DNA of 64,000 bases from assembly GCA_025602915.1 (NCBI GenBank), contig JAHLJZ010000031.1:124001-188000 (forward strand). The letters run 5' to 3'. Below, piece by piece: positions 19,683-43,755 of this stretch. Positions within the stretch are counted from its first letter, which is position 1. Every line of letters begins with the position of its first letter. The notes under the pieces are model-generated. The model did no database searches. It worked only from the letters and a program-made list of their open reading frames with translations, and had not been told where the DNA came from. The translations under genes were made by a program, and so were the position numbers. This DNA comes from Paraphysoderma sedebokerense (taxonomy: Eukaryota > Blastocladiomycota > Physodermatomycetes > Physodermatales > Physodermataceae).

Positions 19683-22600
19683 ATGTGGATGATTGTTGTT
19701 GCGGGATTATTACTTCTGGGTCTCTCTGTTATCGTTAGAAGCAGGAAGCGAGCCAGGGAATCCGAGTCTTCGACAATTTCTCCGGAAGAAGTACGTACAT
19801 TTATCGATTGAAGGACTGGAAAGCAAATTATCTATCATTTACTTCAACTGCTATCCGTTTTAGATTCGTCAAAAGCGTCTCAAACGGCTTCCTTCAGGAA
19901 TCAACAACGAGACTTCCGTCACAGAAAAAAAATCCAGCGGTCACGAAAACCCGTTCCTGAAATTGCAAAAATCATCCAGCAGCAATTCCATAAACAACCC
20001 CCAAAGCTCACCAACAAGTAAGCGAGGGCACCCTAAAAGCAATGACATCCCAAATCCTGAGTCCACCCCCAGTGTCGTCGTCGAAAAAGGTAAAGCCTCG
20101 GCTGTAGTATCAAAACAGGAGGAAGTAAGTTAGAATTAAATGACAATCCATTGGAAAATACTGTACTAAAGATTTACCTCCTTCGACAGCTTAGGCAAAG
20201 AGCTACTTCCAAGCTCGGTTCAACTTCACAAAATGTATCAATGAATGATTTAAATCCCTTCTCAAAGTTGAAATCGCAGGCTCCCCCCACCAAAGTATTG
20301 CCCGGGTCTGCCTCTAATCGTTCATCTCAACTTTCGGGGAAGTCTCGGACAACGTTAAACAATGAGGCAAAATCTGGTACGACATCAGAAATCTTGCCTA
20401 CTAACTCCCTACTGCTGGCGCAGATCTTTGAGAAACCAGAAGAATTCATCAGAACCAAAGTAACAGGAGTCAACACCCAAAATCTAAATGATCACTCAGT
20501 GTGCCAAAATATCATCAAAATTTGTCTTGTGACCGATTTTGGATTGTTGCTCGTTCCGTACATTCTGGGTTGTTTGGATAGATGCAATGTGGAACCTTTG
20601 ACGGCGGCAATGACACACAGGTTGCTTGAAATTCTCGGCAAGAAGCAGGTAGTGTGTACCCATAATGATAGAAGAATCTGGCATGGGCACTAATTACTTT
20701 ATTCTCGCACCACAGAAAACGGTTGATTTGTGGTCAGAGTCGCACAATGACGATTGTCTTGACTTTATAAATGCCATCGAACAAGGCGGCAACAGTACCA
20801 AAAGTTTGCTTCATTTTCAAAACTCGTTAAAATCGGCCGCTAGTGACTTGGTGACTTCCGCTACGGACAATTTACTCCGAGCTGGACTCCAACGTTGTAA
20901 AAAATTGACGATTCACGACGCTATAACAACGAACAGTGTTATTAACGGCATTCGCTCGCTGCTTCAATTGTCAAATCAATTTTCCGTTACCCTCAGTGCT
21001 ATTCTCAAGGAGGAAGCGAAATTCGCTCAAACTTGCTTAGGCCGAGATTTTGAATCCATGTCCGTTCTTAGCCCTTTTACACACGTTTGTATTTTAGCAA
21101 TGTCCAAAGCCGATAAAGATTTGTTTTTCGAAATTCCGAATTACCCGGCATGTACCCAATCTGACATATCACAAAAAATGTATTCTATCCGTACGTCAAC
21201 AGATACAGCCATCGAAGCCTTACATTCCATTCTTCTGGCTTGTATTCGATATGGAGATAAAGAGAACGTGTTGGCATGGTTGGCTGCTGTTATCCGTATG
21301 TGCGAAAGTCGACTTGGAATGAATTTCAAAATGATAAATCCACTTCAACCGACACGAGATGAGAACGTGTCTGCTTCTTTCGCCATGGGAATAGTGTCTA
21401 CTTTGTTAACATTCTGTGTTCCCTTTATGGGGAAAGACCCTGAAATTATTGACATTGAATACTTGCATCACCGATATCGAGTCGATAATACGTTAGAGAT
21501 GGTTTTAAGCCAAGGTAGAGTCTTCTTGTTTCCGTGACGACGATTATTCAATTAGTAAACATGAATACTGCAGGTACAGTTGCTGGCTCTGATAAGAACG
21601 GTGAAGTGGACGACACTAGCGAGCTTTTCCGCACTCCCGCCACGCTCGCCGGCAAATTTAACTTTTCAACGGAAATGTTTTTTCTTACCGCTAGAGCCAT
21701 CCACGTAGGATTATTGCCTATTATCCACGAATACCATGCTCAAATGCAATTTTACAGCCGTTATGTGTCATCAGCCGCTGGCAACGACATGCTGTCTGCA
21801 AACCTTCCTCTTATACAGAAAGAGCAACGCGTCGCTTTCGATATTTACCACACGGCCCTAGGATCGCCTGAACTCATAAAGCAAATGACAATGCATATCG
21901 CATTCACTCGAAAATGGCTAAGTCGCATGTTAAAAACCAATTCTCCGGAACTCAAGCGCATTCCAGAATATATGATACTCGACATTGCAATTTGGGTTAT
22001 AACGGTTACAGAGTTAGAAGGTACTATGTCTTCCTCGATTGAAAACATCTGGAGTGAGTTTTTGGAATTTGGAATGATGTGCTTGGAGGTATTTTTGCTT
22101 TTTTAAACTTTACCGTGTTAAACCCAGTCCACCGACATCGTACTTTAATCTTGTTTTAGCATCGCGATAAATTTCAGCGAATTTTCGTCCCTGCCGCCAT
22201 CATTCGATCTATTGAATATGTTCTTGAAAGTCACGAGCGCCAAACCCAAACCCGTAACAATTCTGCCCTATTGCGTAGCGATTCATGGGGAAGCATGTCA
22301 TCGTCTTCCCTCGAATCAACTTTTTTCTCTCATCCATCTACATCTTCTAAAGTCCCTTCCGCCATCTTTGACATTTACGGCAAGATTGATGCAATCGTCG
22401 GACTTGACGTTGATAAACCAGAATACGATTTATTCAATGAGACGTCTATTCGCATTTCAGTTGTCAAGGCGTTGCTAAAGTTACTTGGAGTTCCGAGACT
22501 ATATACAATCTTTGAATCCATCGCCCAAACTTCAAGTTATGGTGATTTCGCCAAGAAAATGTGCCAAAATTTACTATTTTGCTTGGAAGACGGATTGCTA

Positions 22601-24273
22601 AGAATCAGTAACGCAAGACAAATGGAGTTGACGTTGACGGATAATAATGGAGACTCAATGGAGAAGCAGCAGTTTTTAAGGATGGAAAGAAATGCCGCTA
22701 GGGGTCAAATGCAACTGGTAAGACCTTGCTTTTTAGTTTATTCTCACGTTTAGACTGGTTTTAACATCCTGTCTGACGCTTAGACACGTCTCTTGCTCGA
22801 TGTAGTATTGAGATTAACCGCTTCGAACGAGCTCAGCCATGGTTTTGTAGCAACACCAACACATTGCAGTACCCATGCTTCCGTTTTCATTCGTTTTCTC
22901 AATCTCTTGTGTGGACCTAAGCGAAAAATGTACAAAATATCTAACATGGAAGAAATTGGTTTCCAGCCACTCACCGTTGTCGGAAAAAGTTGTCAAATTC
23001 TGGTTCGATTGGCAGTTGAACGGGACTTTTTGGTCGCCTTGACTCAAGATTTGGATTGGGATATGAGTGTAATGAATGAAGTGATCAGCCTGTTAAACAA
23101 GTCGAATGAGCTGGACTCCCAAGTAATTGCTAGTTTTAGTAATGTGGCGCGCAAAGGTTTATTTGTTACCCAACGGATTCAGATTGGAATTTGTTATTGA
23201 CTTCCTTTACCATTAGTGGCATCACTTCGACAAGCAAGCATTCCTAATACGGGGGCAATCACAAAACGCTTATCATTGCCACAAATTGCGATTGATGACC
23301 CTGCTATTGTCGCAAAATATTTAAAATTATTTGAAGACTTTTCTCAAGTGGATAGCACGTCCTTTCTGGTTTCTGAATCTAGTACTAATGTTTACGCTCA
23401 TGCTTGTCACAACGTCATTGAATCCGAGGTTGACCCATTGGCGCCAAAACATCGTAAACTGATGAAAGAACTTCAATCTCTTCAATCTGCTAACGGGTTA
23501 CCACTTCACCCGTCTTCTTCCATTTTTATTCGACACGACGACGAACGAACAGATGTTTTAAGAGCCATGATTACAGGGCCAGAAGGAACTCCATATTTCG
23601 GCGGCTGCTATTTCTTTGACATATACATCCCGCCCACCTACCCTGCTGTTCCTCCCGTGGTGAAATTCATTACAACAGCGAATGGTACTGTTAGGTTTAA
23701 CCCTAATCTATACAATGACGGTAAAGTTTGCTTGAGTTTACTTGGAACTTGGCACGGCGGTAGCCAAAGTGAAAAATGGGATCCCAATAAGAGTTCCATT
23801 TATCAGGTATGAAATTTAAGTTCCAATTGATATTATTTAGTAGTTAGTATTTACCATGTCTTTGCTCTTTTGAATTACAGATTCTTGTGTCGATTCAAGC
23901 CTTGATTCTGATACCCAACCCCCTACAGAATGAGCCGGGTTACGAATCGTTCTCCGCGACACCAGAAGGTATCAGTAAATCAAAATCTTACAATTCGACC
24001 ATTGCTTTCTCGAATATCCGCTCCGCCATTCTTGGGAACTTGGTGAACGCTCCGGCCGGATTTCAAGATTTAGTTAAAAAGCATGTAGCGATGGTTGGAC
24101 CGTGGATTGTGAAACAGGCGGAAAAGTGGAAAGAAGAATGGGTCGAAGGAGAGTCTGATTCTCAGAAATGGAAGAATCTAATTGCAGAGTTGACTGAGGC
24201 GGTCGTTAGGCTGCGAGAGGAGAGCGGGTTCAGAGACGATGAAACACAAATGGATACCAGCGTTGGAAGTTAA
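19683..24273 (+). CDS. Membrane-anchored UFD2/UBE4-type E4 core fused to a BIRC6-class E2 (UBC) domain
   Basis: Nine exons (19683-19790, 19864-20124, 20190-20648, 20716-21514, 21574-22088, 22160-22717, 22784-23156, 23217-23806, 23881-24273) give 1351 residues, with all phases closing. Residues 3-18 form one hydrophobic helix (IVVAGLLLLGLSVIV) followed by RSRKRAR, a membrane anchor. Across the first splice comes PEEIRQKRLKRL (about 35-45), matching the N-terminal EIRRRRLARL of UBE4/UFD2, the p97-binding motif of UBE4B. A disordered linker leads to the UFD2 core (about 150-1020). Its late landmarks are clear: NETSIRISVVKALLK, LLCGPKRKMYKISNMEEIGF and the RDFLVALTQDLDWD region. Normal UFD2 proteins then have a U-box. 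Here a helix (HRKLMKELQSL) and a full UBC fold follow, with FNPNLYNDGKVCLSLLGTWH and catalytic Cys1196. The UBC part is of the BIRC6/UBE2O class. No U-box is found. Expected role: ubiquitin-chain extension on p97-linked substrates (inference). Confidence 0.9.
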
Positions 24274-24517: not shown

Positions 24518-26396
24518 ATGGATTTATCCGGCGGACCGCAACTCAATATTGGGGAACTCACAGATCATGAAATTCGATTTACACTATCAAACACAGATTT
24601 AAGGTTTGTGTTCATCTCTTCACTCCCTTTTTATTTCGCATTATACTTTGAACTATTGGATATTGAGTGGATCAGTTATGATTTTGAGAGTTTAAGATGA
24701 AATGGGTGCACTCTATTCGAGTAGCGATTTATTTTCAAGTTTTTGGTGATTGGAATAGTTTTGTTTATTTCAAGTTTGATTTGGTGGCATTCGATTATTC
24801 GTATATTTCGTAAACTCAAGATTGATATTATCATAACGGAGAAGATTCAATCAACTGACTGACTTCTTTTTTGTGTGGATGGTTTTTGTCAATTAAAATA
24901 ATAGCGTCGCTAATGCTTTACGACGAATTATGATTGCCGAAGTTCCGACGATAGGTACGCTATTAATCGCTTAACCAGCATAACTCATTTCGAATTGCAA
25001 CACATGAATAAAACAAATATACGATGGAATGTCGAGTGAATTCATCTAACTGGGTTTTGATTTTCTTCATTTAGCCATAGATTTGGTTGAAATAGAATCG
25101 AATACCACAGTTTTAGCGGATGAATTTATAGCACATCGATTGGGTTTGATACCGTTAGACAGTCATATGGCTGAGCAATTAAGATATACTAGAGTTTGTC
25201 ATCTACATTTTTTCTAAATTCACTCCTCACAATTTGAGTTTATTTCGTGTGAAGAGATCATCAAAATGAACACTTGGCTAACATTCTTTCTTGTGTGTTC
25301 TCCCGTCCCGTTCTCTTCTTGAATTATGATAGGAATGTGTGTGTTCGGAATATTGCCATCTATGTTCTGTCGAGCTAACTTTGAATGTGCGGTGTACGGA
25401 TGATCGTACAATGGAAGTAACAAGTAAAGATTTGATATCGAGTAACCCACAGGTGCAACCAGTGTCATTTGGTAATTTATTTGTTTTATTTACAAAGTCT
25501 TCAGAAAATCGTTCTTTTTACTGAATTACTGTTATTCGAACGTACGTACTACGTTGTGTTCATACGTCTTTTTGACAATTAGGCGACGGCGATCCTGGTA
25601 TTTTAATTGTCAAACTTCGAAAGAACCAAGAATTGAAAATTAAATGTATTGCCAAAAAGGTAATATTTGCGTACTTTCTATTTGCTTACTTTCTATTTGC
25701 GGTACACTTTGATCAAGTTCCTGATGAATATTATTTTCCTTGATTTAGGGAACTGGCAAAGAACACGCCAAGTGGTCGCCTTGTTGTGGAGTTGGTTTTG
25801 AGTATGATCCACATAATAAACTGCGACATACGCAGTACTGGGTTGAAGAAGATGAAGAACAGGAATGGCCGAAAAGTGAGAACGCAGAGTTAGAGCCGGC
25901 TCCGATACCGGGAGAACGTACGTCGCGGGCGATTTCCGTTTTCATTGCAGCACAAAATAGTGATATTCTAATACTGTAATTTTTTGATCTTTCTTAAATC
26001 GTGATAGCATTCGATTATAAGGCCGTCCCCAATATATTTTATTTCGGACTTGAATCAAGCGGCTGCATGAAGCCCGAAGAAATTGTCCTTCAAGGATTGA
26101 AACAACTCCAAGGAAAACTTTCCGTCGTGAATCTAGGATTAAGCCAAGAAATTGCCGACATGAACAGACCACCTGGTGTTCCTGCGCCTGGTATGATGGG
26201 AATGCCCGGAATGGGAATGGGTATGAATGGAATGACGAACGGAATGGGCGGTGCAGGTGGGTATTATACTGGCGGTAGAGTGAATGTAGGTGGGATGGGT
26301 GTAAGCGTTGGTGGAGTTGGCGGTGGTGCAGATTGGGGCGATGTTTGGAATACTGGTGGGGGCGGAGGCGGTCACAGTGGACCGAGATGGACATAA
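24518..26396 (+). CDS. RPB3: RNA polymerase II subunit RPB3
   Basis: Alpha-like subunit that pairs with Rpb11 to nucleate RNA polymerase II assembly. Seven exons (24518-24603, 24905-24954, 25075-25193, 25333-25471, 25583-25659, 25749-25917, 26008-26396) give 342 residues, with closing phases. Landmarks: [16 protein letters not shown] then [20 protein letters not shown], the zinc-binding loop C87-x-C89-x3-C93-x2-C96, [11 protein letters not shown] and the dimerisation segment ending in [20 protein letters not shown]. Odd: the C terminus carries about 75 residues of Met/Gly-rich low complexity ([15 protein letters not shown] and [10 protein letters not shown]), longer and more biased than usual. 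Confidence 0.96.
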
Positions 26397-28584: not shown

Positions 28585-28685
28585 GCCCGGGTAGCTCAGT
28601 TGGTAGAGCGTGCGGCTTTTAATCAATACGAAAGTATGTTTGAACGGCCACCGCAAGGCCCTGGGTTCGAGCCCCAGCTCGGGCG
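28585..28685 (+). tRNA. tRNA-Lys (anticodon UUU) with a 28-nt intron
   Basis: Full cloverleaf: acceptor stem GCCCGGG (28585-28591) pairs with CTCGGGC (28678-28684) through one G-T wobble, with discriminator G at 28685. D arm GCTC/GAGC. Anticodon stem TGCGG (28611-28615) pairs with CCGCA (28651-28655), loop CTTTTAA with anticodon TTT at 28618-28620. T arm CTGGG-TTCGAGC-CCCAG. The intron occupies 28622-28649, one base 3' of the anticodon, the canonical nuclear position. A T-run from 28687 serves as the Pol III terminator. The exons closely match eukaryotic tRNA-Lys(UUU). Confidence 0.95.
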
Positions 28686-36470: not shown

Positions 36471-38018
36471 GGTAATTGTATCCGCGTGATGTAGCGGTAT
36501 GAAGGAAATGCGATAACCTTGATAAAATTCCAAAGCAACAAAAGCAGTTCGACGAGGAGCCGTTCCCAAGCCGTAGAAAACGAAATCGGCGCGCCGCTGT
36601 CCGGGTGCATATTCTAAATTGAAACACCGTTGCGAAACGGATAGCGGAAACGAAGTTCGGCTTGTTCACTGCTTTTGCACCGCTGTCCGTCCTTCTACTC
36701 CCAAAAATTTATTGATTAATGTGCGTACGAAGACAGCGTCGATATTTCTCTGGCCAGCATGGTCTCCAAATATATTTCGATATAATATATGATTATGCGG
36801 AATGATCGCGGATCCTCTGTCTCAATTTTGAGCTAGGTTAAGTTCTCTCTAAGCCAGCAAGCATTGTCTTTTTCGGAACACTATGGAGCAACCAGTAGAG
36901 CACCTAGAGGCAAACATACGATAGAGAAGAAGATCTGCAGTACAAAATGTCCCATCGTGTATTTAAATTTAACAGATTTTGATTCCAAACGGGGACAACC
37001 CTGGAGTCGCCTGCATCAAATAAATAATTCAGACGGCTGTACCAATTCTATAACCCATCAGTCGATGTATAATTTTTTTAGTCAAATTTCAGTTACGTTT
37101 CCAGTAAACATTCTTTTCAGATTTGGAAAAAAAGCAAAATTAAGGGCAGATAACAGAAAGCAAATCCTTTCTTAGAGAAAATCCATTTTTAGAAGAGTGA
37201 TTCTGAGGTCGCACTGTGGAAATGAGGCTGCAACTTTGGTGGCTTAGTCAATACATATATAGTAAGAAGCATAATGCGGTTGGTCACATCAGAGTTTTAA
37301 TTTCTTCGATCATTCTCCTGCAGCGGCTGGTGAGCTGAGCGATTTTAATTTCCAGGTGGTGTATAGACTGCGAAACAATCGGGAATTGGCAATTGGCGAT
37401 ATGGCGTGAATGGATGTTGTTAGCTTTGTAATACGCTAATATTGGGTGACCCATGCGTGTGGGGAGTTGAGGGGATTATCAGTCCGGGGTTAGGAGAGTT
37501 GTTAGGAGGGCAGACAGTATGGCGAGGAGGCAAACCGGCAATTGCGGGCCATCAGCGGAATGAGTAATAAATGAATTTTCTGATATGCCGCCATAGAGAT
37601 GGGACATAGGGATACCGAGAGCTCGGGGGCGCTATTGTCAGGGAGGCGACATGTGTGGTTGCGGGGTACGTGACCGCGTGACGCGTGACAGCACCGTATT
37701 TCATTCCCGCGGCCGTCGCACAGGATGCCTTCTCATTGCACAAAAACAGTCGCTCAGCACGCCCGCCCTGACAGATACATCCATCAGAGATATAGATATA
37801 AACAGGTCTCAGATACGCCGGCCCCGCATAGCACCCTGACGCATATCCCCTCCCCTCCATGCATCCCTGTCTGCTGCTCGCAAAACGCCAACTCTGAACC
37901 AGACATTAAATTGCAATATCTCACCTCACGTCTCGAATGTCGCACTCCGACCGCACACATTAATACACCCCTCTCTCTGCCAATCCCTATTACCCAATAC
38001 CATTCATCAACTAATACA
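36471..38018. other. Long divergent intergenic region
   Basis: About 1.5 kb between the orphan (-) and the first alpha-arrestin (+). The reading frame of the arrestin stays open upstream to 37725, but without family resemblance. A cluster of three CGTGAC repeats lies at 37669-37689. Nothing else is supported. Confidence 0.45.
37669..37689 (+). promoter_or_regulatory. Three direct CGTGAC repeats
   Basis: CGTGAC occurs at 37669-37674, 37677-37682 and 37684-37689, about 330 nt upstream of the arrestin ATG. The third copy overlaps an ACGCGT (37681-37686). The spacing of 7-8 nt looks like a regulator-binding cluster. Which factor is unknown. Confidence 0.4.
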
Positions 38019-40271
38019 ATGTCGTCGCATTTTCTTCCTATTTCCTTTTTACCCCCGCCCTCAAACCCCGAAGGAATCCCACAAATGCAGTCACATGCTC
38101 CTTCCTTCTCGTCTTCGTCAAAACTGCCGACCTTGAAACTTGCATCGTCCTCTCTCTGCACTATCCCCTACATACTAGGATTACCCGGCATCACTCGTTT
38201 GAATGTGGCCGCGGTGATAGAAATGGATATTCCCAGAGGATTCGACATTGACAGAATTCTCAAAGTTCGTGCTTGCTTCAACGGCTCAAGCCGGGTTGCC
38301 TTTCTAGGAAAGCAGAATGCAACTGTTATCGATACCAAACCCTTCGCAAAGTCGGCCAAAATTATATGGAACAGAAAACATTTAAATACAGCCGAAAACA
38401 ATAGCAGTTCCAGGGCAAGAACTTTGGGAGCAGCAAGACCTGTCCGAACACTCCATGACTCGACACTTGCAACGGAGCCCGATCTATCGTCACCAGAGTC
38501 TTCTCCTGACCTCTCTAACCAGTCCAACCCTCGTCAGAACCAGCAACCACTTCAATATGGAACCAACAAGTTATATTTTACTTTCCCGATTCCCCATAAC
38601 CTCCCGCCTTCGATCCGCGAAACGACGGCTAATATCATCTACACGTTAACTGTCTATGTCCATATTGCCGCCAGCGGTCAGTCATTGTTCGGGAGTACGA
38701 AGCGAAAGATAATTCATGCAACTCAGGAAATCGTACTGCCGAAATGGGATCTGCAGAATTACATTAATGGGTATCAAGCACTCGGTATTTCGCTATCAAA
38801 CCGAGCAATTAAGGAAGACGAAGTGGAATGTGATTCTCCTCGTCTTTTACATTCCAACTTTCACAACGATGAATCCGCATCAACCGAATCTACTTATCCC
38901 TTAACCTGTATGGAGTCACTTGCATATCAACCGGTTTCCTCCCCAACTTCTGGCGAATTTCCGTCCAGCCCTTCTACCCTCCGAAGTCAACGCCGATTTT
39001 CATTCTCAAGCTCAATTTCACCGTCGCCTGTGTCTCAACCCTTCTTACCAGCTCCACCCCCACTAACGTACGACTTGAATTTGCAAACGCCGACACTTCA
39101 CCCCGGCAGGGCGTTGTCTTTTCATCTAACATTGACAACCCCTTTCCCGGACATGATTGTCGACGTCTTGCATGTTGGTCTGAAAAAGTATACAGACACA
39201 TTGACAATGGGAATGGAGGACAGAGAATGCGAATATGTGTGTCGATGGAAAGTAAGGGGTTTGAATCAGTTTTGGAAAGCGGTGGATGCTAGCACTTTGA
39301 GTGACGAGTTCGGCCAGAATGAATCTTCCGTGTCGTTTGAAGATGTCGAAATGACTGACTCCGATCCCGACAGAATAGTGAGCACAGCTCAACCTATCAA
39401 TATCAATCGAAATTCTGACGCACCACCATCTTACGCATCCATCTTGCCGTCCCCTTCTTCGTTCAACCAAGATGTATCTCCCATTGTCGCTGCAAACAAT
39501 AACCGCACTTATGTTTTGTCTCAGACTTTCCATTTCCCACTTCCAGAACAATTGACTCCGTCGGCACAATACCTTTTGCATCAAGATTCATCTTTCAAGA
39601 TATCTTACAAACTCAAATTGTCACTTTCAAGTTGCAATCAATCAACTCCTACCCGGTCGGAATTTTCTCCTGTTTCAATAAATCCACCTATACCTCGATC
39701 TCCTGTCATTTCATCTTCGCCGCCTTCAACTGTTTCAAATAACTCGTACTTTCCAAATACGAACACTTCCAACACCTCTCACGGTCTCCATTCTCCCCCA
39801 CCAAGCCCTACTTCCGAAACTTATCCCTCCTCTTTGTCTCTTGGCACATCACCTCCTTCAGAACCTGAATCGGAGCCACAAACCTTCTTTTCCAAAGCTC
39901 GTCGAAGACTTTCTCTCCTTCCCATTCAATTACCTCATCTCAACTTTTCTTCTATTTCTTCAATGTTCAAATCCTCGTTCGCTAAAACAACCAGAATTCA
40001 AACAGAAGTAAAAGTAACGTGTGGTCCCGTGGAAGGAATGACTGCCAGTGTAGACGATCTAGTGAGAAGATGTACAGAAGGAAACGGATTTTTCAGCGGT
40101 GACACCGTCACAGCAAGTTCAGGTGATTCCCCACCTGCAATTGACGGTAACGACGAGTCAACCGATTTGGATGGATCAAATCGTGCGGGAGTACCTGCCA
40201 CGGGGTACCATGAGTATAGAGAAATGATTGGATTAGATGATCAGGAAGAATTGGATAGGTGGTGGAATTGA
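38019..40271 (+). CDS. Alpha-arrestin (ART-like ubiquitin ligase adaptor), paralogue 1
   Basis: Single exon of 750 residues from the ATG at 38019 (MSSHFLPISF). The arrestin N-like part has LKLASSSLCTIPYILGLPG..NVAAVIEMDIPRGFDIDRIL and FTFPIPHNLPPSIRE..TLTVYVHI. The C-like part contains TYDLNLQTPTLHPGRALSFH. A PPxY motif (P469-P-S-Y472), the site that recruits Rsp5/NEDD4-type ligases, lies between the C-like domain's halves. The C-terminal tip is QEELDRWWN. Long Ser/Pro loops are inserted. The expected role is to link membrane transporters to ubiquitination and endocytosis (family knowledge). It forms a tandem pair with the gene at 41689. The arrestin fold call rests on pattern and the PPxY, not on an alignment. 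Confidence 0.75.
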   Translation: MSSHFLPISFLPPPSNPEGIPQMQSHAPSFSSSSKLPTLKLASSSLCTIPYILGLPGITRLNVAAVIEMDIPRGFDIDRILKVRACFNGSSRVAFLGKQNATVIDTKPFAKSAKIIWNRKHLNTAENNSSSRARTLGAARPVRTLHDSTLATEPDLSSPESSPDLSNQSNPRQNQQPLQYGTNKLYFTFPIPHNLPPSIRETTANIIYTLTVYVHIAASGQSLFGSTKRKIIHATQEIVLPKWDLQNYINGYQALGISLSNRAIKEDEVECDSPRLLHSNFHNDESASTESTYPLTCMESLAYQPVSSPTSGEFPSSPSTLRSQRRFSFSSSISPSPVSQPFLPAPPPLTYDLNLQTPTLHPGRALSFHLTLTTPFPDMIVDVLHVGLKKYTDTLTMGMEDRECEYVCRWKVRGLNQFWKAVDASTLSDEFGQNESSVSFEDVEMTDSDPDRIVSTAQPININRNSDAPPSYASILPSPSSFNQDVSPIVAANNNRTYVLSQTFHFPLPEQLTPSAQYLLHQDSSFKISYKLKLSLSSCNQSTPTRSEFSPVSINPPIPRSPVISSSPPSTVSNNSYFPNTNTSNTSHGLHSPPPSPTSETYPSSLSLGTSPPSEPESEPQTFFSKARRRLSLLPIQLPHLNFSSISSMFKSSFAKTTRIQTEVKVTCGPVEGMTASVDDLVRRCTEGNGFFSGDTVTASSGDSPPAIDGNDESTDLDGSNRAGVPATGYHEYREMIGLDDQEELDRWWN

Positions 40272-41688
40272 GTTAACTAAGTTTAACTAAATCTAGTTTC
40301 TAGCACCTTGCCATACCCATTGCGAACACTTTCTTTTGCGACTCTTCCATTACTTGCCAATTATCATGTATATATTTTCCATTTCACTAGACTAGATGTC
40401 CTGTACATGTGTGTTGTACATACCTTTATTCATCAAATTTATTGTTATTATCCATTTTATTCAAATGATAATACCTGATAAACATTTTACTTGACATAAA
40501 TTGTCTTTGTCCTTGTTGATCCCGCTATGATAATTTACCGCAACCGCCATTCCTGAGGAAGATTGAATGCATTCATGAAAATTAATGTTAAGTTTAACAG
40601 GCGACAACAGATCCCTGTAAGTATGTAGAGTCGACATTAACAGTATGGTTTCGATCCATCCTAACTTATAACATTTCGAATTTTTCAATACATAAGAATC
40701 AGAATTATATTATTGCATCCCAACAGAAAGAATAAACAATAATTCAGTTAATTAGCCGAATACTGCGTGTTTGCGACCCAATCTTTGACATATTTTGCCT
40801 CAATATTTTAAATAAGATACAAACGATTACAAGAAATGATCTGTAAAGTTTATTACGATTTTAACGATATTGGCTGTCACTCGCATTCATATTTCCTCTA
40901 AACTAATCTCCGCTGAATCTGAAAACTGGTTAGATCGCCTACCAATCTGTACGGTGGTATTACTGTTACGATTCCTCAGCGGCGCGCATTTTCACGACCA
41001 AGCGTCGTTTTTAAGATAGAAGATTCCAACAAAAGAAACAGTCGTCACCAATGGCGAAAATAATTCTGACGACAAATGGTGGCGCTAGTTTTAACAGTTA
41101 ATTCTTTGGAATGGAAGATGGCTGTTTTCCGCCGGCGCCCAATATTGTGAGGTACTCAACAGTTTGTCTGTTTTGTTCTGAATACAGTTGTACTGGCGTC
41201 ATTCTGCTAGTGAAGACAATACGTTCGGTACTCCTGGGGTTAGTATCGGGGAAAAAGAGGGTAACAGTCAACAGATAGTGCAACAGAGATGCGGTTTAAA
41301 AATAGGACTGGTAGCGAGGATGGGAGTTGGTGTATAGTGAAACTTAAACATGAGACAATCGTGATCAAGTTGGAACAATTGCGCGGGCGACTCGGAGTCT
41401 CAGACCGAGGGATTTGACTCTGGGCGATTCTGTGATGACTGTTATATATTTCAGAAGGTAGCCAATGTGAGGGGTTCAATTTACAGATTTCCAAATAGAC
41501 GTTCGCAGATAAAGTAAGTCATATATCTCTTAGCAGAACTGTTTCACTATAGAGTAACGGTAGGGTAACTTTGGTTTTCGTACAGATAGTCAACTTTTTA
41601 CGCGATTGGGAATTTGGTACCTCGAATTTAGGAGATTTTTAGTTAAATCGACTATTACATTACCCCACACAGTCACACACCCATATCA
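40272..41688. other. Intergenic region between arrestin paralogues
   Basis: About 1.4 kb with only short, unconvincing ORFs on both strands. It probably holds the 3' end of paralogue 1 and the promoter of paralogue 2. Confidence 0.4.
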
Positions 41689-43755
41689 ATGACTTTTCCT
41701 AATCTTTGTATACTTCCGAAAGCCATCTCCTCTTCTTTTTCACAACCGACCTTGAAACTTTCATCTTCTTCCCTCTGTACGATCCCTTATATCATAGGAT
41801 TACCGGGTATAACTGATCTGAATGTGGCCGCAATAGTGGAAATTGATATTCCCCCCGGATTCGATGTTGACAGAATTATCGGAGTTCGTGCGTGGTTTAA
41901 TGGTTCTAGTAATGTAACTTATGTTGAAAAGCAGCATGAAACCGTGGTAGATACGAAACCAGTCGTGAAGGTAGCAAAAGTCATTTGGCATCGAGCAAAT
42001 TCGAATTTAGGGGGTACGAATGGGGAAAGTCATTCTGATGCCACAGTAAGAAGATTGGGCGAGGAAAGCGTTGATCAAGTTATCCATTCTTCGGAACCTC
42101 CGTTCCATCCAGACCAATCCTCACCGGAATGTTCACCGAACGTTTCTGACCCCTCCAACTGGTCCGATTCTCGTCCACAGAAACGATTTCAATGCGGAAT
42201 TAATAGAATTCCATTTACATTTTCAATTTCACATAATCTTCCACCTTCGGTTCGGGAACCTACGGTTACTGTTTTCTACACTTTAACAGTTTATATGCAT
42301 ATTGCCACCAGCGGTCGGTCATTATTTGGAAGTAAAAAGAGGAAGATGATTCATGTAAGTCAAGAGATTGTACTGCCGAGATGGAATTTGCAAAACTACA
42401 TCGACGGGTTTCAAGCGCCGGGAAGATTTTTATCAAACCGGATTATTCAACATGTCGGCGTGGACCGTCGGCCTCATCAAGTTTTACAATCCAATTACCG
42501 AAACGATCAAATCATGACACCAACACCGAACCGTTTATATTCGTCACGCCGTACCGTTCGCCGGAATCGTCACGGTCACATTTGTCCACCGTCTTTGCCC
42601 GTTCCACCCCCATTAACGTACGACTTGAATGTGCGAAGTTCGACAGTTCAACCCGGCAAAGCCTTATCCTTTCATCTAACATTGACCACCCCTTATCCGG
42701 ATATGATTGTAGACGTGCTGCATGTCGGTTTAAAAATGTACACGGACACAGTGACGATGGATATGGAAGTTACGGAATCTGAATACGTATGCCGATGGAA
42801 AATAAGGGGTTTGGATCGATTTTGGAAAGTGGTAAATGCAAGCGACTTGAGGTATGTCGGTAGACAGAACAATTCAGATACGCCATTCGATAATGGTAAT
42901 ATGGTTCAATCGAGTACAAACATGGAGAATGATGCTCCTCATTCTGGCGCGCCGCCATCGTATTGTCCCTTTTTGGATGAGGTCCGGTCAGATAATTCAG
43001 ATACCAGCATTAATCGACTTTACATTCTGTCCCAAACTTTCCATTTTCCGCTTCCTGACTATCTAACTCCGTCCTCCGATTATCGCGCGCACCAAGTCGA
43101 TTCATCTCCTAAAATTCATTATAAATTCAAAATAAAACTTTCATGTCGCACTCCATCATCTCTATCGCGATCGAAATTCAATTCTGTTTCAGTCAATCCA
43201 AATTTATCTCGGCTTTCACTGTCTCCGCCCTCAAATGATTCCACTCCTTTAAACAGGGTGACATCACTACCAACAAGCTGTCGCAACCAGGACTCCCACC
43301 CACGCAGTTCTCCTACTGCTAACTATCTGTCGTCGTCTCTTCTTCCCCACGCTTCAAAGCCAAATAGGAAACCACGAAGATTTATCGTCTCTGCTCTCCA
43401 AAAATTGTCATACAATCCCACTCAGTTAACACGTCTCAACTTCCCGTCATTCAATTCGATTTTCAAGTCGTTTGGTGCTACAACGATTAAAATTCAAGCG
43501 GAAGTAGAAGTAGCTTCTGGTTCCGTGGAAGGAATGAATCTTAGCGTAGATGAATTGATCAAGCGGTATATGGATCACAGCGAAATACTGGGCGGTTGTG
43601 CGGTCACATCGACTGATAGTCCGACTGAGGAACCTCCGGAAATGGACTTTGGACTTGATTTTAGCCACGTCGATGTAGACGGAACGAGTATACTTTCTGA
43701 AGGAAACAATGAAAGTAGAGACTATCAAGAAGAATTAGATCCGTGGTGGAGTTAG
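41689..43755 (+). CDS. Alpha-arrestin (ART-like), paralogue 2
   Basis: Single exon of 688 residues. It is collinear with paralogue 1: LKLSSSSLCTIPYIIGLPG versus LKLASSSLCTIPYILGLPG, FTFSISHNLPPSVRE, TLTVYMHIATSGRSLFGS, PGKALSFHLTLTTPYPDMIV, LSQTFHFPLPDYLTPS, and the C-terminal QEELDPWWS. The PPxY is kept (P422-P-S-Y425). Ser/Pro linkers differ in length and the loop near 43200-43370 is largely rewritten, so the copy is not recent. Same strand, same intronless structure, no inserted genes: tandem duplication followed by divergence. Confidence 0.75.
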   Translation: MTFPNLCILPKAISSSFSQPTLKLSSSSLCTIPYIIGLPGITDLNVAAIVEIDIPPGFDVDRIIGVRAWFNGSSNVTYVEKQHETVVDTKPVVKVAKVIWHRANSNLGGTNGESHSDATVRRLGEESVDQVIHSSEPPFHPDQSSPECSPNVSDPSNWSDSRPQKRFQCGINRIPFTFSISHNLPPSVREPTVTVFYTLTVYMHIATSGRSLFGSKKRKMIHVSQEIVLPRWNLQNYIDGFQAPGRFLSNRIIQHVGVDRRPHQVLQSNYRNDQIMTPTPNRLYSSRRTVRRNRHGHICPPSLPVPPPLTYDLNVRSSTVQPGKALSFHLTLTTPYPDMIVDVLHVGLKMYTDTVTMDMEVTESEYVCRWKIRGLDRFWKVVNASDLRYVGRQNNSDTPFDNGNMVQSSTNMENDAPHSGAPPSYCPFLDEVRSDNSDTSINRLYILSQTFHFPLPDYLTPSSDYRAHQVDSSPKIHYKFKIKLSCRTPSSLSRSKFNSVSVNPNLSRLSLSPPSNDSTPLNRVTSLPTSCRNQDSHPRSSPTANYLSSSLLPHASKPNRKPRRFIVSALQKLSYNPTQLTRLNFPSFNSIFKSFGATTIKIQAEVEVASGSVEGMNLSVDELIKRYMDHSEILGGCAVTSTDSPTEEPPEMDFGLDFSHVDVDGTSILSEGNNESRDYQEELDPWWS

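What the first reader, a model, noticed from the sequence alone, without database searches (positions are those of the whole stretch)
19683..24273. UFD2/UBE4-type E4 in which the U-box is replaced by an E2 (UBC) domain
UFD2/UBE4 proteins elongate ubiquitin chains using a C-terminal U-box that recruits an E2. Here the core continues to the normal U-box position and then runs, in phase across a 60-nt intron (23157-23216, AAA G|TG GCA), into a BIRC6-class UBC domain with catalytic Cys1196 (NDGKVCLSLLGTWH). The protein would carry its own E2 instead of recruiting one. Seen: full-phase nine-exon model, UFD2 core landmarks, UBC landmarks, no U-box. Inference: a self-contained E4-E2 chain-elongating enzyme. 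I know of no description of this architecture but cannot search for one.
Basis: partly seen in the sequence, partly recalled or inferred. Interest (0 to 1): 0.88.

Follow-up and report, generated by a model that had tools for sequence, protein, structure and literature searches.

The report
Ancient membrane-anchored E2–E4 ubiquitin hybrid
This gene encodes one protein that joins the body of a ubiquitin-chain-lengthening factor to its own ubiquitin-carrying enzyme, probably behind a membrane anchor, and it belongs to an old, uncharacterised family seen in animals, algae, protists and this probable fungus.

The parts
19683..24273 (+). whole gene, nine exons, 1351-aa E2-E4 hybrid
19686..19736 (+). 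N-terminal hydrophobic, presumably transmembrane, helix (residues 2-18) in exon 1, followed by RSRKR
   Evidence: Kyte-Doolittle mean 2.28 over residues 1-19; simple hydropathy only
19791..19863 (+). intron 1, phase 0, directly before the Ile of the VBM-type motif; by eye the genome's U-box UFD2 has an intron at the same place
19864..19887 (+). IRQKRLKR (residues 37-44), fits the published VCP-binding motif [aliphatic]RXXRXXR
21073..23218 (+). Ufd2 core (residues 396-1025), interrupted by introns
23157..23216 (+). intron 7 (60 nt, in-frame TGA 23198-23200) at the end of the core
23217..23512 (+). linker between core and UBC; in the family profile the stretch before the UBC is matched by BIRC6 too
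23513..23922 (+). UBC (E2) domain, residues 1124-1235 by Pfam, BIRC6 class; similarity to BIRC6 covers 1096-1321; contains intron 23807-23880
23729..23731 (+). codon of catalytic Cys1196

Best explanation
Shown: this is a member of a widespread paralogue family of UFD2, undescribed as far as I could find, in which the C-terminal U-box is exchanged for an E2 domain of the BIRC6/UBE2O class. Inferred: exon 1 anchors the protein in a membrane, most likely the ER, with the rest in the cytosol. The basic motif behind the helix docks it on p97/Cdc48. The Ufd2 core holds ubiquitin-tagged clients there. The fused E2, charged directly by an E1, adds ubiquitin without recruiting a separate Ubc4-type E2. 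It would thus lengthen or branch chains on clients being extracted by p97, in parallel with the U-box UFD2 that the same genome has.
Against: No activity, localisation or binding is tested. The motif is seen in 15 of 45 sequences examined (some are incomplete at the N-terminus); of the 12 with a helix only 4 (window, P0004, P0127, P0139) fit the strict consensus, the other 8 having Lys for the last Arg. Mollusc and algal-type members lack it, and the Lingula and two diplonemid-type records have the motif without a helix. Membrane anchoring may be opisthokont-specific. In the model the catalytic loop (residues 979-995, with Cys985) is under pLDDT 50. The core tree alone does not fix where the window sits. 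A mitochondrial outer-membrane anchor would look similar.
Confidence: 0.6

Rival explanations
1. It works like UBE2O/BIRC6, an E3-independent E2/E3 that starts ubiquitination on its own substrates, with the Ufd2 core serving only as substrate receptor; it is not an E4.
For: Nearest UBC relatives are BIRC6 and UBE2O, named in the PDB as dual E2/E3 or E3-independent; hybrids lack the E2-recruiting U-box.
Against: The Ufd2 core is kept with the yeast Ufd2 fold in the modelled relative, and weak UIM matches and VBM-type motifs occur, which fits work on already tagged clients; initiation and elongation are not exclusive.
Confidence: 0.28
2. Gene-model artefact: two neighbouring genes, a truncated UFD2 and a BIRC6-like UBC, joined by a false intron.
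For: One in-frame TGA (23198-23200) separates the halves, and the donor GTTTAT is not the strongest; no cDNA was available.
Against: 40 other proteins have the same join, including records labelled as transcripts (P0015, P0016, P0023); the hybrid UBCs form their own clade; GTTT donors fit introns of the genome's other UFD2.
Confidence: 0.02
3. The UBC was fused more than once, and this gene arose from the organism's own UFD2 line.
For: Deep branches of the core tree are weak, and placing the window core beside the U-box UFD2 clade as a whole is not rejected (AU p 0.32). Two distant hybrids (P0017, P0037) score no better against the window core (50 and 47 bits) than its own UFD2 (49 bits).
Against: Hybrid UBCs monophyletic 99.3/100; pairing the window core with its own UFD2 is rejected, delta lnL 118; the 27 animal-type hybrid cores score 125-195 bits.
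Confidence: 0.05
4. The E2 domain is a non-catalytic scaffold; the protein tethers p97 or ubiquitin.
For: No activity data; a U-box-independent role of yeast Ufd2 is reported (abstract of PMC4582114).
Against: Cys and Asn of the active site kept across the family.
Confidence: 0.05

Closest known systems
UFD2 / UBE4A / UBE4B (E4 ubiquitin-chain elongation factors)
   Different: No U-box; an E2 domain at that place; an N-terminal hydrophobic helix; separate from the three U-box UFD2 cores in the core tree
BIRC6 (Apollon) dual E2/E3
   Different: No BIR domain hit, far shorter, Ufd2 core instead; hybrid UBCs in a clade of their own
UBE2O, E3-independent E2
   Different: UBC less similar than BIRC6's; Ufd2 core in place of the UBE2O N-terminal parts
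Membrane p97-docked ligases of ERAD (Hrd1, gp78)
   Same: Membrane helix plus p97-binding motif in one ubiquitin enzyme (PMC5559722 passages); similarity of layout only
   Different: They are multi-spanning E3 ligases; no sequence relation was tested

Membership tests
UFD2/UBE4 E4 ligases | Ufd2 core (PF10408) | tested here: met
   E=1.8e-55, profile 3-627 of 628
UFD2/UBE4 E4 ligases | C-terminal U-box | tested here: not met
   none at E<=1 in the window protein or in any of 21 members scanned; so it is filed as a paralogue family, not a member
UFD2/UBE4 E4 ligases | N-terminal VBM-type sequence, as in UBE4B (sequence only) | tested here: met
   IRQKRLKR fits the consensus; binding not tested, motif in 15 of 45 sequences and often not strict
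UFD2/UBE4 E4 ligases | chain elongation on pre-ubiquitinated substrate | not testable with these tools
   -
BIRC6/UBE2O-class E2 | UBC domain of this class | tested here: met
BIRC6/UBE2O-class E2 | catalytic Cys with upstream Asn | tested here: met
   C1196 and N1188 invariant in 21 aligned; motif in 39 of 40
BIRC6/UBE2O-class E2 | E3-independent ubiquitin transfer | not testable with these tools
   -
BIRC6 proper | BIR domain | tested here: not met
   no BIR family at E<=1

The most novel reading that the evidence does not exclude
Early eukaryotes, perhaps already their last common ancestor, had a second kind of UFD2: a one-piece E2/E4 without a U-box. It seems absent from yeast and vertebrates and so was never studied. 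In opisthokonts it sits in the ER membrane and docks on p97, and in cnidarians, molluscs and sponges a lumenal EF-hand may let ER calcium gate chain elongation during protein extraction.
Probability: 0.3. Interest if true: 0.9.

Novelty: new variant of a known kind. Interest (0 to 1): 0.76.

Why it matters
Ubiquitin enzymes are taught as separate E1, E2, E3 and E4 steps. Here an E4 body and an E2 are one molecule, kept together across distant eukaryotes, with a probable membrane anchor and a p97-type docking motif in part of the animal and probable-fungal branch. It predicts a p97-linked ubiquitin pathway that the usual model organisms may not show, and gives a simple recombinant test of whether an E4 core can drive chain growth from a fused E2.

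Tried and rejected
Core-only search with the window protein (residues 190-1090) returned one protein, itself a hybrid: the core is too divergent for word-based search. The core tree (43 sequences) puts the three U-box UFD2 sequences in a clade of 100/100 apart from the 40 hybrid-side cores, but deep branches are weak; placing the window beside that clade or with animals is not rejected (AU p 0.32 and 0.26, 5000 resamplings, which the program calls too few). Only three U-box UFD2 cores were at hand, so animal UBE4A/UBE4B are not in the tree; UBE2O and UBE2Z were not put in the UBC tree. Shared introns: of five hybrid introns in the core none lies within 10 alignment columns of a UFD2 intron, the nearest being 12 away (UFD2 boundaries approximate). 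Organism: chitin synthase profile PF03142 gives 46 matches, best E=4.8e-204, but the same profile also rings in 4 of 14 bacterial control genomes, and Zn_clus gives only five hits; four requests for the 18S rRNA did not complete. 'Probably an early-diverging fungus' stays an inference. A search of the own genome with hybrid P0136 gave its best matches at the window gene and no second hybrid.

Rows dropped before counts: P0145 left out of the 40-hybrid motif count; P0126 and P0145 out of the UBC tree (no catalytic pattern found), then thinning at 88% identity took 140 to 105 sequences; P0023, P0138, P0141 and P0145 were not put in the core tree; P0139, whose record lacks the UBC, was kept there. 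One search measured the helix-motif gap in the 15 motif-bearing sequences only. In one search only 120 of 214 hits were listed and only the 8000 candidates sharing most words were scored. In one search the rows 2qiz and 9khs_A run past Ufd2 residue 879 (to 903 and 912); ranges give only first and last aligned residues.

Literature: ten paper searches over a library without most subscription papers or preprints. Eight looked for the fusion; two were for the VBM and Ufd2/Ubc4. Passages seen: PMC3087547 (says Ufd2 relatives carry a C-terminal U-box), PMC6548493 (a Biomphalaria ufd-2 with only the Ufd2 core detected, which could be a hybrid, not followed), PMC11354881, PMC7838096, PMC5559722, PMC10641518, PMC2408969; abstract and outline of PMC4582114. 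All other papers: search listings only.

Full report
What is there. The window holds a nine-exon gene at 19683-24273 (+) whose spliced product is 1351 aa with no internal stop. Pfam finds two families above their cut-offs: Ufd2P_core over residues 396-1025 (E=1.8e-55, profile 3-627 of 628) and UQ_con over 1124-1235 (E=1.1e-22); UEV overlaps weakly below its cut-off, and no U-box appears at E<=1. The best solved relatives are the E2 domains of BIRC6, then UBE2O and UBE2Z. The splice that joins the halves (23157-23216) removes an in-frame TGA. Its GTTTAT donor is not the strongest, but three introns of another gene of this genome also fit only with GTTT donors.

It is a family. The search with residues 150-1351 listed 120 of 214 hits; 19 of these 120 carry both Ufd2P_core and UQ_con. 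The core-only search gave one hit, also a hybrid. The search with part of the Lingula core gave 30 hits: 26 with both domains, 3 with the core only (among them P0139, a sponge by its label, with EF-hands), and 1 U-box UFD2. Together these are 40 distinct hybrid records (clusters at 90% identity) besides the window. Source labels name Lingula, three Branchiostoma, Haliotis, Nucella, Littorina, Babylonia, Patella, Gigantopelta, the chiton Liolophura, the annelid Owenia, Actinia, Oculina and Chrysophaeum (a pelagophyte). The labels Ulvmu1 and Hpha I read as Ulva mutabilis and the diplonemid Hemistasia (the expansions are recalled). Many records are unlabelled metagenome proteins. Names given are 'uncharacterized protein' or generic, with P0139 called E4 B. 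No vertebrate, insect, yeast or land-plant hybrid appeared among the labelled rows; with word-based search this suggests absence but does not prove it.

One fusion. In a tree of 105 UBC domains all 31 hybrid domains form a clade (SH-aLRT 99.3, bootstrap 100) apart from 74 non-hybrid UBCs drawn from the same search; inside it the window groups with 17 animal-type sequences (73.7/85). In the core tree the U-box UFD2s (this genome's, yeast's, P0144) form a clade of 100/100, and pairing the window core with its own UFD2 is rejected (delta lnL 118). The window core scores 125-195 bits against 27 animal-type hybrid cores and 49 against its own UFD2, but two distant hybrids (P0017, P0037) score only 50 and 47, and deep branching among the cores stays open. 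Presence in opisthokonts, a green alga, a stramenopile and Euglenozoa with a monophyletic UBC points to an early origin. Lateral transfer is not excluded.

Residues 2-18 are strongly hydrophobic, followed by RSRKR. Then comes SPEE-IRQKRLKRL. The VCP-binding motif consensus is [aliphatic]RXXRXXR, and UBE4B binds p97 through an N-terminal one (passages of PMC5559722). The window sequence fits it once; shuffles give one in 0.5% of trials for residues 19-190 and 3.4% for the whole protein. A motif of this type stands in 15 of 45 sequences examined. In 12 of the 15 a hydrophobic helix ends 15-18 residues before it; the Lingula record and two diplonemid-type records have no helix. Of the 12, four (window, P0004, P0127, P0139) fit the strict consensus and eight have Lys for the last Arg. 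Cnidarian-type members have an EF-hand, the helix and the motif, most with a hydrophobic start (a signal peptide by eye). Most molluscs have EF-hand and helix without the motif. EF-hand models hit up to 4 of 21 members. By eye this genome's own U-box UFD2 begins MEPLSDADK-IRAKRLAKL with no helix, and in both genes a phase-0 intron stands right before the Ile. The motif region is therefore probably homologous, and the hybrid's first exon supplies the anchor.

How it most likely works. Shown: domain make-up, kept catalytic residues, family history; the gene model rests on frame and homology, without cDNA. Inferred: membrane anchoring (ER most likely because animal relatives appear secretory at the N-terminus), p97 docking, direct charging by E1 as for BIRC6 and UBE2O (PDB titles include E1-BIRC6 and E1-UBE2O complexes), and chain lengthening or branching on clients held by the core. 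PDB 9khs and 9kht show Ufd2 with Ubc4-Ub on K29-linked chains (titles); the hybrid would have the E2 built in. Weak UIM matches in some members fit work on tagged clients. The rival that it acts as an E3-independent E2/E3 is close.

Novelty. Eight paper searches aimed at the fusion turned up no description of a Ufd2 core joined to a UBC in their listings and in the passages opened; the evolutionary study seen in passages describes Ufd2 relatives as carrying a C-terminal U-box (PMC3087547). The library lacks most subscription papers. Protein databases already hold these records with both domains assigned, so the pairing is visible there, but I found no name or study.

Noticed in passing
P0075, P0096, P0101, P0104, P0112, P0117 and others: Proteins whose listed domains combine ubiquitin-activating enzyme (E1) families with a BIRC6-type UBC: apparent E1-E2 fusions from unlabelled metagenome contigs; several cluster together in the UBC tree.
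   Followed up: no
P0036 (Pecten) and P0114 (Saccostrea): Bivalve proteins of 2000 and 1784 aa with AAA/ORC-like families and a UBC, P0114 also with PF01426.
   Followed up: no
P0139 (label scpid, probably the sponge Sycon): Record named E4 B with hydrophobic start, two EF-hands, membrane helix, two VBM-type motifs and Ufd2 core, ending before any UBC; possibly a truncated hybrid.
   Followed up: partly
window 28585-28685 (+): Rfam finds a tRNA over 101 bases (probably with an intron) that ARAGORN does not report.
   Followed up: no
window 37689-40268 and 41647-43752 (+): Two neighbouring long open frames, each with an arrestin N-terminal match, one above and one just below the family's cut-off.
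   Followed up: no
window about 24518-26396 (+): The gene directly downstream looks like RNA polymerase II subunit RPB3 (by eye from the translations; not searched).
   Followed up: no
P0005, P0007, P0008, P0129 (mollusc-type hybrids), after the membrane helix: They lack the VBM pattern but carry a basic stretch at a similar place (QKEAWLNRM, RREAWLTKV, KREEWLKRV, RQEWLNRL); possibly another p97-binding form.
   Followed up: no
Biomphalaria glabrata ufd-2 BGLB026024-PA (PMC6548493): Reported with only the Ufd2 core and no U-box; may be a mollusc hybrid whose UBC was missed.
   Followed up: no
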